From positions 22,301-86,300 of the forward strand of contig JAQBVN010000010.1 of NCBI GenBank assembly GCA_027622975.1: a stretch of DNA of 64,000 bases, given 5' to 3'. The stretch's first letter is position 1. The number at the start of each line of letters is the position of its first letter. This stretch comes from Bacteroidota bacterium (lineage in GTDB: Bacteria > Bacteroidota > Bacteroidia > Flavobacteriales_D > Sanyastnellaceae). The notes under the pieces are model-generated. The model did not search any database. It had not been told where the DNA came from and saw only the letters and a program-made list of their open reading frames with translations. The position numbers were made by a program, and so were the translations under genes. This document shows, in pieces, positions 11,480 through 20,046 of this stretch.

Positions 11480-11553
11480 TGACCCTGTAGGGATTCGAAC
11501 CCCAAACCTCCTCATCCGTAGTGAGGTGCTCTATCCAGTTGAGCTACAGAGCC
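11480..11553 (-). tRNA. tRNA-Arg, anticodon ACG
   Basis: The 74-base minus-strand sequence folds as a full cloverleaf: acceptor GGCTCTG/CAGGGTC, D arm GCTC/GAGC, anticodon stem CCTCA/TGAGG around loop CTACGGA, a five-base variable loop, and a T arm with TTCGAAT. The anticodon is ACG, read after A-to-I editing as CGU/CGC/CGA. The discriminator is A and CCA is not encoded. The genomic location is intact with no sign of an inserted element. Confidence 0.97.
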
Positions 11554-16385: not shown

Positions 16386-16393
16386 TATATTAG
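16386..16393 (+). promoter_or_regulatory. -7 promoter box TATATTAG before the Cys leader
   Basis: TATATTAG ends four bases before the ATG of the leader peptide, the same geometry as the other boxes in this window. It differs from TAnnTTTG at one position. Transcription from here would start at or next to the leader ATG. Confidence 0.5.
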
Positions 16394-16397
16394 GGCT

Positions 16398-16481
16398 ATG
16401 GTTTTGTTATTCGCCTGGAACGTGTGCTGCGGTTGCTGTTGTCCATCTCCCGAATCGGGAAGGTTGCTGACAATGCCGTGA
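16398..16481 (+). CDS. Cys-rich leader peptide (27 residues) of the sulfite reductase operon
   Basis: An ATG at 16398 opens a 27-codon frame whose middle reads N-V-C-C-G-C-C-C-P (five cysteine codons among six at 16425-16442). It ends at TGA 16481, 94 bases before the reductase start, and is followed by an intrinsic terminator. This is the arrangement of an amino-acid leader: charged tRNA-Cys lets the ribosome pass, shortage stalls it at the cysteine run. Cys-rich leader frames controlling sulfur genes are known in mycobacteria; I know of no such description in Bacteroidota. No homologous function is implied for the peptide itself. Confidence 0.75.
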   Translation: MVLLFAWNVCCGCCCPSPESGRLLTMP

Positions 16482-16537
16482 AGTTTCGCGCTTCGGGCAA
16501 AGACAAAGGCCTCCCTCTCTGGGAGGCCTTTTTTTTT
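16448..16537 (+). promoter_or_regulatory. Putative cysteine-responsive attenuator
   Basis: Three elements can pair in exclusive ways. A small hairpin TCCCG-AAT-CGGGA at 16448-16460 holds GGGAAGG (16457-16463) closed. If opened, GGGAAGG can pair with CCTCCC (16510-16515), the left arm of the terminator, with one bulged A. A ribosome stalled on the Cys run would cover about 16440-16457 and so break the first hairpin, which would let the antiterminator form. This fits classic attenuation logic; it is drawn by eye and unfolded by computation. Confidence 0.55.
16505..16537 (+). terminator. Intrinsic terminator in the sulfite reductase leader
   Basis: AAAGGCCTCCC pairs with GGGAGGCCTTT across a five-base loop, giving an 11-bp stem, and nine T follow. 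It is inside the leader between the Cys peptide and the reductase gene, so it must be bypassed for expression. Confidence 0.88.
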
Positions 16538-16575: not shown

Positions 16576-18675
16576 ATGCAAAGTTTCATCAGTGAAATCG
16601 AGGATCCCATCGTGCAGCGAGACATCCTCGAGTTGAACAAGAAGATCCTGATGTTTCGTGAAGGCCGAATCGACGAGGAGCGTTTTCGCAGTCTGAGACT
16701 CGCTCGGGGCGTCTACGGCCAAAGGCAACCAGGTGTACAAATGATTCGAATCAAAGTGCCTTTGGGCCTGTTGACGTTTGGCCAGTTTCGTGGGATTCTC
16801 GACATCTGTGACCGGTACAGCACCGGAAAGTACCACATCACCACCAGGCAAGACATTCAGATTCATCACGTCAGATTGGAAGACAGCCCGGTGCTTTGGG
16901 CAGAGCTTGAGTCCCACGACGTCACTCTCCGCGAGGCATGCGGCAACACCGTCCGCAACATCACAGCTTCGCCCATGGCGGGACTGGATCCCAACGAACC
17001 CTTCAATGTCCTGCCCTGGGCCGATGCCACGTGGCGCTATTTCCTGCGCAATCCTGTATGCCAAGAGATGGGCCGGAAATTCAAAATTGCCTTCTCCAAT
17101 ACCGAAGAAGACAGTGCCATGGCAGTCATGCACGATCTCGGCGTGATTCCAGCCCTGAACAACCAGGGCCGTCCGGGATTCAAAATGCTCATCGGCGGAG
17201 GTTTGGGTGCCCAGCCGGCTGAAGCCGATGTGCTCTTCGATTGGGTGCCCACCGATGAGCTCATTCCTTGGACGGAAGCATTGCTGAGATTCTTCGATCG
17301 TGAAGGTGAAAGGACCAAACGACACAAGGCTCGCTTCAAGTTCCTGTATCAGCAACTCGGCAAGACAGCCTTGATGGAGGCCCTGAAACAAGAGCGTCTC
17401 GCGGTCACGGGGCCGTTTCCAGAAGTGAATCATCGTGACATCTCAGCGCCGTCCCGAGCCAGCATTCATGAGGAGGATGATCCCGAGGGCCACGAACTTT
17501 GGAGACAGAGCCAAGTGCAAGCCCAACGACAAGAGGGACGATTTGCCGTGGGAATCAGGGTTCCTTTGGGGGATGAAACAACCCATCGGACGCGACAATT
17601 GCTCCAAGCTCTTGAGCCACTTACAGAGGGGGAATTGCGTTTGACCCAAAGCCAAAACATCCTGCTCCCACACATCCGTGAAGAAAACCTCTCCGCCATT
17701 CACAGGGTATTGAAAACCTTGGGGTGGGATGCCTTGGGATTTGAATCCGGCGTGGATGTCACCGCATGTCCTGGCACAGACACCTGCAACTTGGCCATCA
17801 CCAACAGCACCCACCTGGCCACTGAATTGGAACACCTTCTGGAGGAGGAATTTCCCCATGTCATTCAAGACCGATCCTTCAGCGTGAAGATTTCTGGCTG
17901 CATGAACGCCTGTGGACAGCACACCCTGGCCTCGGTGGGTTTGCACGGGAGCAGCATTCGAAAAGACGGTGTTGTGATTCCAGCCATGCAAATTTTGGTT
18001 GGAGGCGGCAAGCGGCAAGATGGGTCGTGGCGCTTTGGAAAAAAGGTGATCAAACTTCCCACCCGCAGGATTCCAGAAGCCATACGCACACTCTTGATTG
18101 ACCATGAATCCCACCAGCGCCCCCATGAAACATTCGCGGATCACGTGGAGAATTTGGGTGATCGCTACTTCTACAACCTTCTGCTCCCTTTGGCCGATGT
18201 TCCAAACGCCGACGACAACTCGTTGCGGATGGACTGGGGATCGGACATCCCCTTCGTGCCTGAAATCGGCGTCGGAGAATGTGCAGGTGTCGTCATTGAT
18301 TTGGTGTCCACCTTGTTGCTGGAAGCTCGTGAAAAGTTAGATGCTGCAGAAGAGGCCTTGATCGAAGAAACATGGGGACATGCTGTCTATCACACCTACG
18401 CCGCATACATCGCCGGGGCCAAAGCTTTGCTGATTCAACGGGACCTCCCCACCAACAGCTATGCGGACATCATCGCCGCGTTTGACGAGCAGGTGGTGGC
18501 GACTGGAGAAATTTCGCTTCCGGCAGGATCCTTCACTGCCCAAACCCTCTCCTATCTCGGTGGGGGAAATCGCCCAGAATTTGCCCGTGCCTTTGCCGTC
18601 GATTGTGCCGAGTTTTTGGTCGATCTGCAACGACTTACTGGACACTCAACTTCCACAACACCTAAAGCATCATGA
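16576..18675 (+). CDS. Ferredoxin-type sulfite/nitrite reductase fused to a HEPN-like domain
   Basis: The 699-residue protein carries the two NIR/SIR repeats and the siroheme/4Fe-4S cysteines in VTACPGTDTCNLAI and SGCMNACGQH. It reduces sulfite to sulfide or nitrite to ammonia with six electrons; the Cys leader upstream favours sulfite. The last ~130 residues are not part of the reductase fold: LEAREKLDAAEEALIEE, YHTYAAYIAGAKALLIQRD and ARAFAVDCAEFLVDLQ look like a four-helix HEPN domain, a fusion I recall from other Bacteroidota. Its role is unknown. The stop overlaps the next start (ATGA), so the siroheme genes are coupled to it. Confidence 0.9.
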   Translation: MQSFISEIEDPIVQRDILELNKKILMFREGRIDEERFRSLRLARGVYGQRQPGVQMIRIKVPLGLLTFGQFRGILDICDRYSTGKYHITTRQDIQIHHVRLEDSPVLWAELESHDVTLREACGNTVRNITASPMAGLDPNEPFNVLPWADATWRYFLRNPVCQEMGRKFKIAFSNTEEDSAMAVMHDLGVIPALNNQGRPGFKMLIGGGLGAQPAEADVLFDWVPTDELIPWTEALLRFFDREGERTKRHKARFKFLYQQLGKTALMEALKQERLAVTGPFPEVNHRDISAPSRASIHEEDDPEGHELWRQSQVQAQRQEGRFAVGIRVPLGDETTHRTRQLLQALEPLTEGELRLTQSQNILLPHIREENLSAIHRVLKTLGWDALGFESGVDVTACPGTDTCNLAITNSTHLATELEHLLEEEFPHVIQDRSFSVKISGCMNACGQHTLASVGLHGSSIRKDGVVIPAMQILVGGGKRQDGSWRFGKKVIKLPTRRIPEAIRTLLIDHESHQRPHETFADHVENLGDRYFYNLLLPLADVPNADDNSLRMDWGSDIPFVPEIGVGECAGVVIDLVSTLLLEAREKLDAAEEALIEETWGHAVYHTYAAYIAGAKALLIQRDLPTNSYADIIAAFDEQVVATGEISLPAGSFTAQTLSYLGGGNRPEFARAFAVDCAEFLVDLQRLTGHSTSTTPKAS

Positions 18676-19538
18676 CACGAGGACATCTTTGGCTTGTGGG
18701 AGCAGGGCCAGGAGATCCTGAGCTCATCACCCTGAAGGCCGCACGGGTATTGCAAGGAGCGGACGTTGTCTTGCACGACAGTTTGGTGCATCCCGACATT
18801 CTCAGGCATGCTCATCCCGAGGCGAATGTTCAATGCGTGGGGAAGCGTGCGGGTCGAGAAAGCACCCCCCAAGTGGTCATCCATGAACTCATCGCCGAGG
18901 CGGCTCAAGAGGGAAAACAAGTCGTTCGGCTCAAAGGCGGCGACCCCATGATGTTGGGGCGAGCCGGAGAAGAAATGGCCTTTGCTGACGAAGCTGGAAT
19001 TCCCTGGACGTATGTCCCTGGAATCAGTTCAGGGACCTCTTTGCCAGGACTGGCTGGCATCCCGCCCACCCTTCGCGGTGTGGCCTCCTCGGCATGGCTG
19101 GGAACCGCTACGGATCAACATGGACGTCTCACCTCTGATTTGGTCCAAGCCTTGAGCACCAACTCCACCTTGATCATCTTCATGGGACGACGTCGGATTC
19201 GGGACATTGCCTGGCATCTGGTCCATGGTGGTCGGGGCTCGATGCCCGTGGCCGTGATTTCTGAGGGAAGCTTGCCCGGCCAACAAACAGTCGTGCACGA
19301 TGCGGACACTTGGGTCTCATTGAAGAACCTGCCCACGCTGCCAGATCCTGCCCTCCTTGTGGTGGGAGAGGTGGTTCATCACCGCATCCAACACCAGTCC
19401 AATCAGGCCTTGATTCCAGAATCCCATCCACAGAAACACTCCCCCATCCGTCACTTTCCAACCTTTCAGCATGAACACGAAATTCCCCCTGTTCCTCAAA
19501 CCGGAAGCCGTCAAATTCAACGTCTTCGGAGGGTCTGA
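18672..19538 (+). CDS. cobA: Uroporphyrinogen-III C-methyltransferase
   Basis: The 288-residue enzyme transfers two methyl groups from SAM to uroporphyrinogen III, giving precorrin-2 for siroheme. The family motifs are present: LVGAGPGDPELITLKAARVL, DVVLHDSLV, VRLKGGDPMMLGRAGEE, YVPGISSG and IIFMGRR. About 30 residues at the end (from SHPQKHSP on) lie beyond the normal SUMT fold and overlap the next gene by 68 bp, an unusually long overlap. It is the single-function form, without the CysG N-terminal half, which is encoded by the next gene. Confidence 0.93.
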   Translation: MTRGHLWLVGAGPGDPELITLKAARVLQGADVVLHDSLVHPDILRHAHPEANVQCVGKRAGRESTPQVVIHELIAEAAQEGKQVVRLKGGDPMMLGRAGEEMAFADEAGIPWTYVPGISSGTSLPGLAGIPPTLRGVASSAWLGTATDQHGRLTSDLVQALSTNSTLIIFMGRRRIRDIAWHLVHGGRGSMPVAVISEGSLPGQQTVVHDADTWVSLKNLPTLPDPALLVVGEVVHHRIQHQSNQALIPESHPQKHSPIRHFPTFQHEHEIPPVPQTGSRQIQRLRRV

Positions 19539-20046
19539 AATCGCCGAAGAAAAACTTCATTTCTTGCTCAAAAGCAGTCCACAGGCACAAATCCAGGTGT
19601 TTGCGGCATCCTTCTCTAAGCCTGTTCTCTCGCTCGCGCACAATCACCCAAACGTCCGACTCGTGAAGCGTTGGCGTGCATGGCCTTGGGATTTGGGACG
19701 AGGTGAAATCAGCATCGTCGCCACGGTGGTGGCACGCGAGGTTCTCTGGAATCAACGCGTGTGCCGATGGCGAGGTCACCTGCTCAATGTGGCGGATGTG
19801 CCTGACCAATGTGACTTCTACATGGGTGGAATTGTCACCAAAGGCCCCTTGAAGTTAGCCATCAGTACGGACGGCAAGGCCCCCATTTTGGCCAAGCGAA
19901 TGCGCGAATGGCTCGAAGACGTCCTTCCTGAAGATGTGGAGGCTTGCATCCATGAGGTTGAAGCCTTACGCCGTGAATTGCGTGGAGACTTCGCCCAAAA
20001 ACAAGCGACCCTTCGCGCCCTGACTAGGCACTTTCGTGCGTCATGA
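19471..20046 (+). CDS. Precorrin-2 dehydrogenase/sirohydrochlorin ferrochelatase
   Basis: The 191-residue protein corresponds to the N-terminal half of CysG (Met8/SirC type), which oxidises precorrin-2 with NAD and inserts iron to give siroheme. FPLFLKPEAVKFNVFGGSEI is the start of the NAD-binding fold, though the usual GGGxVA loop is less regular here (FGGSEIAEEK). LLNVADVPDQCDFYMGGIVT, LAISTDGKAPILAKRMREWL and the helical C-terminus are diagnostic. It starts inside the SUMT gene and closes the operon, supplying the cofactor of the reductase two genes upstream. Confidence 0.9.
   Translation: MNTKFPLFLKPEAVKFNVFGGSEIAEEKLHFLLKSSPQAQIQVFAASFSKPVLSLAHNHPNVRLVKRWRAWPWDLGRGEISIVATVVAREVLWNQRVCRWRGHLLNVADVPDQCDFYMGGIVTKGPLKLAISTDGKAPILAKRMREWLEDVLPEDVEACIHEVEALRRELRGDFAQKQATLRALTRHFRAS

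What the first reader, a model, noticed from the sequence alone, without database searches (positions are those of the whole stretch)
16386..16537. Putative cysteine-sensing attenuator in front of a sulfite reductase/siroheme operon
Seen directly: a 27-codon frame with N-V-C-C-G-C-C-C-P, a promoter-like box four bases before it, an 11-bp terminator with nine T, and an alternative pairing between GGGAAGG (16457-16463) and CCTCCC of the terminator arm. The Cys run is placed so that a stalled ribosome would break the hairpin at 16448-16460 and free the antiterminator. The operon makes sulfide, the cysteine precursor, so the logic fits. Cys-rich leader frames are known in mycobacteria; I know of none in Bacteroidota, where the transcript here would also be leaderless.
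Basis: partly seen in the sequence, partly recalled or inferred. Interest (0 to 1): 0.82.

Follow-up and report, generated by a model that had tools for sequence, protein, structure and literature searches.

The report
Cysteine-codon switch before sulfur genes
In front of the genes for sulfite reductase this bacterium carries a tiny reading frame with a run of cysteine codons followed by a terminator hairpin, a similar pair precedes a cysteine-synthase gene and recurs in many related bacteria, and it is predicted to let these sulfur genes be transcribed mainly when cysteine is scarce.

Summary
The leaderless-looking 27-codon frame (five Cys codons), the 11-bp terminator with nine T and the alternative pairing are at the stated places, and chance does not explain the Cys run (0 of 5000 shuffles). 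All five genomes of the genus with the sulfite reductase keep the -7 box, Cys run, GGGnAGG segment and terminator; the six without it (four only 78-80% complete) show no leader. A second poly-Cys leader plus terminator precedes a cysteine-synthase gene in the window's genome and five more of the genus, two of which lack the reductase. In the wider order such leaders stand upstream of sulfite reductase in 25 of 32 genomes and of cysK in 20 of 24, with two in series in 4 and 8. Folding with an assumed ribosome footprint agrees with trp/his logic, better than shuffles. In other lineages the leaders mix Met with Cys codons far beyond expectation. Best explanation: ribosome-mediated transcription attenuation sensing Cys-tRNA. 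The general mechanism is known, and Cys leaders are reported elsewhere (Rhodobacterales cysS, mycobacteria). My searches found no report for Bacteroidota sulfite reductase or cysK. Nothing has been tested at the bench.

The parts
16386..16393 (+). -7 promoter box TATATTAG (Bacteroidota TAnnTTTG type, 5 of 6 fixed bases)
   Evidence: box ends 3-4 nt before the start codon in the five genus SiR leaders; TATATT invariant in alignment A2. Consensus given for Flavobacterium in PMC9723704 (passage).
16398..16481 (+). leader reading frame, 27 codons plus TGA, MVLLFAWNVCCGCCCPSPESGRLLTMP
   Evidence: aligned in five genomes with an in-frame 3-nt gap.
16425..16442 (+). control codons C-C-G-C-C-C (segment 1)
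   Evidence: 0 of 5000 shuffles; 5-6 Cys codons in each of the five genus SiR leaders, TGT and TGC mixed; only the window has a Gly inside the run.
16448..16460 (+). small hairpin TCCCG-AAT-CGGGA that holds part of segment 2
16457..16466 (+). segment 2 / antiterminator GGGAAGG(TTG); GGGnAGG invariant in five genomes
16505..16515 (+). segment 3: terminator 5' arm AAAGGCCTCCC
   Evidence: AAGGCCTCCC invariant in the five genomes.
16521..16537 (+). segment 4: terminator 3' arm and T tract
16576..18675 (+). sulfite reductase-type hemoprotein (NIR_SIR), 699 aa, first gene after the attenuator
   Evidence: Pfam over cut-off; NCBIfam sulfite/nitrite reductase models match below their cut-offs.
18672..19538 (+). 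uroporphyrinogen-III C-methyltransferase (cobA/cysG C-terminal type)
19471..20046 (+). siroheme synthase N-terminal domain (precorrin-2 dehydrogenase type)

Best explanation
A 27-codon frame with five cysteine codons, followed by a terminator hairpin in front of the sulfite reductase-siroheme operon, likely works as a ribosome-mediated transcription attenuator that senses charged cysteine tRNA. Inferred steps: transcription would start at or next to the ATG, so the frame would be translated without an upstream leader. With enough Cys-tRNA the ribosome would run to the TGA at 16479-16481 and cover segment 2, so the terminator (segments 3:4) would form and RNA polymerase would stop before the operon. 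When Cys-tRNA is short the ribosome would stall on the Cys codons and cover segment 1, segment 2 (GGGAAGG) would pair with the terminator's 5' arm (GGCCTCCC) before the 3' arm is made, and transcription would continue into sulfite reductase and siroheme synthesis. Without translation the Cys codons are predicted to pair with the stop region and the terminator would form. Shown by sequence: all parts, their conservation in five genomes, and a second poly-Cys leader with a terminator before a cysteine-synthase gene in the same genome. Not shown: transcription start, translation, read-through, or any response to cysteine.
For: Anatomy and chance. Conservation: the five genus genomes with the reductase carry -7 box, ATG, Cys run of 5-6, GGGnAGG and terminator; the six genus genomes without it give only 14-33-base matches. 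A second poly-Cys leader plus terminator stands before cysK in G000, G004, G007, G009, G002 and G006, and in 20 of 24 order genomes forward versus 0 of 24 on the reverse strand. At sulfite reductase in the order: 19 of 26 further regions forward versus 1 of 26 reverse; with the five genus genomes and G046 this is 25 of 32. Folding with an assumed footprint: the nascent 5' arm pairs with segment 2 when the ribosome sits on the Cys run in each of the five (G009 not at the first Cys, G007 not at its early single Cys). Shuffle control on stalled-state pairing: genus SiR 7.0 versus 4.55 (1 of 40 shuffles reach it), cysK 10.67 versus 6.02 (0 of 40), 43 others 8.70 versus 5.75 (0 of 40); stalled-minus-stop difference 1.80 versus -0.31 (2 of 40), 4.50 versus 0.90 (0 of 40), 4.86 versus 1.16 (0 of 40).
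Against: Full-length MFE folds always keep the terminator, also with a stalled ribosome, so the switch must be kinetic. For the window's leader the antiterminator duplex alone is not better than shuffles (p = 0.36; 0.12-0.33 for the other four). In the five genus SiR leaders 4-6 bases of the nascent 5' arm still pair, mostly with the leader's first bases, with the ribosome at the stop or absent. Over 54 leaders at least 5 bases of the 5' arm pair upstream in 53 when stalled, but also in 29 with the ribosome at the stop and 39 with none (means 8.7, 4.2, 6.6), so a protecting 1:2 structure is not seen in many relatives. The window's Cys run is interrupted by a Gly. No leader was detected in 7 of 32 order genomes, 66 of 80 named loci and 49 of 60 phylum regions, where the enzyme is mostly an inner gene and leaders beyond the fetched stretch would be missed. 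No leader at cysS (two loci) or PAPS_reductase matches of the genus. No RNA data.
Confidence: 0.85

Rival explanations
1. A poly-Cys leader that works by translational attenuation, as reported for mycobacteria: stalling on Cys codons opens the ribosome-binding site of the first gene.
For: Poly-Cys, leaderless-looking frame in front of cysteine-pathway genes; passages citing Canestrari 2020.
Against: A strong intrinsic terminator with nine T stands between leader and gene and is kept in the five genomes. The start codon of the reductase (16576) lies 38 nt beyond the T tract. [quoted passage not shown]
Confidence: 0.05
2. The frame encodes a functional Cys-rich micropeptide (for example metal binding), and the terminator is a separate feature.
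For: The peptide start MVL is the same in the five genus SiR leaders.
Against: Cys number varies from 4 to 7 in the genus leaders and flanks diverge. In Christiangramia the conserved end PHT* coincides with antiterminator pairing at the stop codon. Other lineages keep only Cys (and Met) codons in place.
Confidence: 0.05
3. A metabolite riboswitch or protein-bound leader, with the Cys frame incidental.
For: The leader is strongly folded (z -5.13).
Against: No Rfam family except tRNA reaches its gathering score in the window or in 14 related loci; at relaxed threshold the leader gives only sub-gathering hits. Leader sequence is not alike between lineages, whereas Cys codons plus a terminator recur.
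Confidence: 0.03

Closest known systems
trp/his-type ribosome-mediated transcription attenuators of amino-acid operons (recalled scheme)
   Same: Leader frame with runs of the pathway's own amino-acid codons, segments 1:2, 2:3, 3:4, terminator before the first gene.
   Different: Cysteine instead of Trp/His; predicted leaderless start; Bacteroidota host; in some relatives two complete modules in series.
uORFC-8-2 motif upstream of cysS in Rhodobacterales (PMC8632094, passages seen)
   Same: Tandem Cys codons in a leader frame, terminator with U run, inferred stalling on Cys codons.
   Different: Alphaproteobacteria, cysteinyl-tRNA synthetase gene; no such leader at the two cysS loci scanned here (G000, G004).
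Poly-Cys leaderless uORFs of mycobacterial cys operons (Canestrari 2020, not held, known here from citing passages; Seliverstov 2005, PMC1262725, passages seen)
   Same: Leaderless poly-Cys frame before cysteine-pathway operons.
   Different: PMC1262725 found no conserved terminator hairpins there, and PMC13236596 calls it translation attenuation; here an intrinsic terminator is conserved.
Leader-peptide attenuation inferred in Flavobacterium psychrophilum (PMC9723704, passages and section 19 seen)
   Same: Same phylum, amino-acid operons.
   Different: Section 19 names pheA and hisG among conserved 5' elements; cysteine genes or sulfite reductase are not named in what I saw; supplements not seen.
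Tandem attenuators of Salmonella mgtCBR (PMC3641672, listing and start of abstract only)
   Same: Two short frames in one leader, anticipated to control transcription.
   Different: One Salmonella operon of another function; here relatives carry two frame-plus-terminator modules, each with its own Cys codons.

Membership tests
ribosome-mediated transcription attenuator (trp/his type) | short leader frame with clustered codons for the end product of the pathway | tested here: met
   sulfite reductase and cysteine synthase lie on the route to cysteine (families; pathway recalled).
ribosome-mediated transcription attenuator (trp/his type) | intrinsic terminator between leader frame and first gene | tested here: met
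ribosome-mediated transcription attenuator (trp/his type) | antiterminator that competes with the terminator and is freed by a stalled ribosome | tested here: met
   In silico only: (1 of 40 shuffles for the genus SiR set); single-sequence duplex test for the window not significant.
ribosome-mediated transcription attenuator (trp/his type) | segment 1:2 pairing that protects the terminator without translation | tested here: inconclusive
   Seen in free folds of the genus SiR leaders, but in 39 of 54 leaders the 5' arm still has at least 5 bases paired upstream in the free nascent state.
ribosome-mediated transcription attenuator (trp/his type) | read-through rises when the cognate charged tRNA is short | not testable with these tools
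   Needs reporter or RNA data.
mycobacterial poly-Cys leaderless translational attenuators | leaderless start of the poly-Cys frame | tested here: inconclusive
   -7 box ends 3-4 nt before ATG in five genomes; no start-site data.
mycobacterial poly-Cys leaderless translational attenuators | no terminator hairpin, control at translation start of the first gene | tested here: not met
   Conserved terminator.
uORFC-8-2 (Rhodobacterales cysS) | located upstream of cysS | tested here: not met
   Upstream of sulfite reductase and cysK; no leader at cysS of G000 and G004 (other cysS loci not scanned).
Rfam riboswitch, T-box or leader families incl. Bacteroid-trp | match at the gathering score | tested here: not met

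The most novel reading that the evidence does not exclude
Bacteroidota run a widespread sulfur-amino-acid regulon without a dedicated regulator protein: leader frames before sulfite reductase and cysteine synthase read the charging of cysteine tRNA, in several lineages of cysteine and methionine tRNA together as a two-input gate, repeatedly through two complete attenuators in series, and in one genome the gated transcript also carries the tRNA-Cys gene itself.
Probability: 0.45. Interest if true: 0.75.

Novelty: new variant of a known kind. Interest (0 to 1): 0.64.

Why it matters
A leader-peptide switch at sulfite reductase and cysK, recurring over several families, would give a simple and directly testable account of how these Bacteroidota match sulfide production to cysteine demand. 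It would add a Cys (and Cys/Met) class of transcription attenuator and suggest leaderless leader peptides outside Actinobacteria. It would also offer natural series-coupled attenuators for study of gain and threshold.

Tried and rejected
Rfam search of window and 14 related loci: nothing but tRNA at gathering scores; at relaxed threshold the leader gives sub-gathering hits such as Phe_leader and Thr_leader that span the terminator, set aside without viewing alignments. The sigma-70 type promoter scan found nothing at the leader. Leaders at the ten PAPS_reductase matches and at two cysS loci of the genus: none found. Sulfite reductase as an inner gene of longer operons (Flavobacterium, Aquimarina, Algoriphagus and similar titles): no leader found in the stretch held; several scan hits and one were dropped because they look like the C-terminus of an Rrf2-like protein. 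Also dropped from the Met count: two other scan hits of unlikely kind; one overlong frame was trimmed to its likely start. An antiterminator bracket projected onto alignment A3 was misplaced by my hand count ('antistem' row) and was not used. Two leaders (L026, L067), in which the automatic terminator search failed though I read one by eye, are in the Met count but left out of the pairing tests (27 of 29 leaders; also not).

Control residues: the same scan for other amino acids gave, hits forward/reverse, W 1/0, H 0/0, Y 1/1, D 6/1 in the phylum regions and, regions forward/reverse of 26, W 0/0, H 8/3, Y 6/1, F 14/7, P 6/1, M 17/6 in the order regions, against C 20/2 hits and 19/1 regions. So part of a forward excess comes merely from short frames lying before terminators; Cys stands out by ratio.

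Full report
WHAT IS THERE. Upstream of a three-gene operon (sulfite reductase-type hemoprotein 16576-18675, uroporphyrinogen-III methyltransferase 18672-19538, siroheme-synthase N-terminal domain 19471-20046) lies a -7 box TATATTAG (16386-16393), a 27-codon frame MVLLFAWNVCCGCCCPSPESGRLLTMP* (16398-16481), and an 11-pair terminator with nine T (16505-16537). The preceding frame is on the other strand. In 5000 dinucleotide shuffles none gave a closed frame with five Cys in six codons, and this is the only such short frame in the window on either strand. None of 200 shuffles folds as stably as the leader.

CONSERVATION IN THE GENUS. The enzyme is found in 5 of 11 genomes held for the genus. All five have the leader at the same place: MVLIQNASYSACCCCCCPPDSGRFATAM (G009), MVLIPNACFVACCCCCPTPPSGRQSAVS (G007), MVLIPNVCFMACCCCCPTARRGRFAVAS (G010), MVLIPIACFMACCCCCPTARTGRFAVAS (G004) and the window's own. 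A DNA search with the leader matches these five along much or all of the query; in the other six genomes only stretches of 14-33 bases match. Four of those six are only 78-80% complete. The alignment shows an in-frame 3-nt gap, TGT/TGC exchange in the Cys run, and invariant GGGnAGG and GGCCTCCC. Two of the genus genomes appear in the named collection as MAGs labelled Flavobacteriales bacterium (L009, L010).

A SECOND COPY AT cysK. Of the two strong cysteine-synthase matches in each of G000, G004 and G007, one has its own poly-Cys leader and a strong terminator: MTFSTNMCCCCCCCLTDRGRLRMRG in the window's genome, with counterparts in G004 and G007. DNA similarity then showed it in G009, G002 and G006 too, so in 6 of the 7 genomes searched; G010 (73% complete) gave no match. 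G002 and G006 have no sulfite reductase match, so there the cysK leader keeps its Cys codons on its own. The TIGR01136 scores of these genes (about 272 bits) are below that family's cut-off of 344 bits, so 'cysK' is a family-level name. No leader was found at the ten PAPS_reductase matches or at the two cysS loci scanned.

BREADTH. Phylum sample: 67 of 392 genomes have the enzyme at E <= 1e-100; I fetched upstream stretches for 59 of the 66 others, plus G046. A scan for at least 2 Cys in 4 codons before a terminator gave 20 hits forward and 2 reverse, and 6 versus 0 at 3 in 6; part of the forward hits look like C-termini of an Rrf2-like gene. Leaders directly before the enzyme were flagged by the scan in 9 of these 60 regions and read by eye in 2 more (G179, G195). 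In the 80 named loci (some are the same genomes as in the phylum sample) I found leaders in 14: two of the window's genus, three of three titled Christiangramia or Gramella, one Salegentibacter, six of six titled Mucilaginibacter and two of two titled Pedobacter. Some of these are weak on Cys alone and were accepted by eye from place, terminator and likeness: L045 (one Cys), L053, L026, G179, G195 (two or three scattered) and L067 (GTG start). In the window's order 32 of 299 genomes have the enzyme. Of the 26 not seen before, 19 have a leader forward and 1 has a hit on the reverse strand, by scan alone; with the five of the genus and G046 this is 25 of 32. In nine genomes of one genus (g224) the leader stands about 1 kb before the enzyme, in front of another reading frame. 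For the cysK homologue 24 of 199 order genomes have a close match; 20 of 24 have a leader within 1.5 kb upstream, 0 of 24 on the reverse strand, in 12 of the 20 at 0.4-1.4 kb from the match. Two complete modules in series occur in 4 of the 32 before the enzyme (G046, G450, G586, G567) and in 8 of the 24 before cysK.

MECHANISM. I folded each genus leader with an assumed ribosome footprint masked: everything up to 13 nt from the start of the A-site codon when stalled, 18 nt before to 13 nt after the start of the stop codon when terminating. With the ribosome on the Cys run and the terminator's 3' arm not yet made, segment 2 (GGGnAGG and following) pairs with the 5' arm, at best 6-9 bases in each of the five (G009: not at the first Cys of the run). 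With the ribosome at the stop codon segment 2 is mostly covered, though 4-6 bases of the 5' arm then pair with the leader's first bases. With no ribosome the Cys codons pair with the stop region. With the full RNA the terminator always wins, so the switch has to be kinetic. Over 54 leaders the 5' arm has on average 8.7 bases paired upstream in the stalled state, 4.2 with the ribosome at the stop and 6.6 with none; at least 5 bases in 53, 29 and 39 leaders. The stalled state is thus distinct, but a protecting 1:2 stem is not seen in many relatives. Because the footprints differ in what they hide, I repeated this on sequences shuffled between Cys run and terminator: stalled-state pairing was 7.0 against 4.55 for the five genus SiR leaders (1 of 40 shuffles reached it), 10.67 against 6.02 for six cysK leaders (0 of 40), and 8.70 against 5.75 for 43 others (0 of 40); the stalled-minus-stop difference was reached by 2, 0 and 0 of 40. 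The duplex test alone, one leader at a time, gave p from 0.003 to 0.49, and 0.36 for the window (27 of 29 leaders), so the window's own antiterminator rests on conservation and on the wider class, not on its single sequence.

MET WITH CYS. In the 24 leaders outside the window's genus of the first set, internal Met is 56 against 11.3 expected from base-shuffled codons, and Met lies within two residues of Cys in 22 of 24 (permutation mean 13.0, 0 of 1000). That set includes the few leaders accepted by eye, where Met next to Cys may have helped me see them. A second set of 22 order leaders, chosen by the Cys scan (three hits dropped as unlikely, one trimmed), gave 81 against 12.6, and 22 of 22 (mean 14.1, 0 of 1000). 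The window's genus shows no clear excess at SiR (4 against 1.9; 2 of 5 next to Cys), and the cysK leaders of its family have Met next to Cys in only 2 of 24, against 3 of 3 in family f9 (pieces trimmed, at least 3 Cys in 6 required; the 22 Met against 9.9 counted for the first group include start codons). Sequences within a genus are not independent. Met next to Cys could also serve other ends; two-amino-acid sensing is one reading.

KNOWN AND NEW. Seven literature searches, two on mycobacterial poly-Cys frames and one on tandem attenuators, in an open-licence library, show: Cys leaders without conserved terminators in Actinobacteria (PMC1262725, passages), mycobacterial leaderless poly-Cys frames cited as translation attenuation (PMC13236596, passages; also cited in PMC9094748, passages; the original was not held), tandem Cys codons with a terminator before cysS in Rhodobacterales (PMC8632094, passages), and clues for leader-peptide attenuation in F. 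psychrophilum (PMC9723704, passages and section 19; supplements not seen). None of what I saw names Cys leaders before sulfite reductase or cysK in Bacteroidota. Leaderless mRNAs are given as 5.5% in F. psychrophilum (PMC9723704), and about 3.7% of 5' UTRs are shorter than 10 nt in B. thetaiotaomicron (PMC7366714, passages), so a conserved leaderless leader would be unusual. That the trp/his scheme works by segments 1-4 is recalled.

VERDICT. The mechanism class is known; the setting, the Met/Cys mix, the series arrangement with Cys leaders and the predicted leaderless start are new as far as searched.

Noticed in passing
L006:3560-3633 minus (same place in L178:5493-5563 minus): In G046 a tRNA-Cys (gca) gene lies between two tandem Cys leaders with terminators and the sulfite reductase gene, so the tRNA would be under the same control.
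   Followed up: partly
L247, reverse complement, about 206 to 70 nt before the cysteine-synthase match: Second poly-Cys leader plus terminator before a cysteine-synthase gene in the window's own genome.
   Followed up: yes
L128, L129, L138, L140, L149, L211, L224: An Rrf2-like gene with a Cys cluster lies upstream of the sulfur operon in Flavobacterium-type loci and some order genomes; it may be an alternative or additional regulator (name by my reading, not by a family search).
   Followed up: no
L217 (G567): Two Cys leaders with terminators stand upstream of a run of same-strand frames that ends in sulfite reductase, so a whole operon would be gated; the genes were not identified by a family search.
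   Followed up: partly
window 18672-20046: The methyltransferase and siroheme-synthase N-terminal frames overlap by 68 bases as listed, and the methyltransferase start overlaps the sulfite reductase stop by 4 bases.
   Followed up: no
window 18310-18495 (protein residues 579-640): The C-terminal part of the sulfite reductase has a weak HEPN match just below the Pfam cut-off (20.5 against 22 bits).
   Followed up: no
window 11480-11553 minus: tRNA gene, the only Rfam match of the window at gathering score.
   Followed up: no
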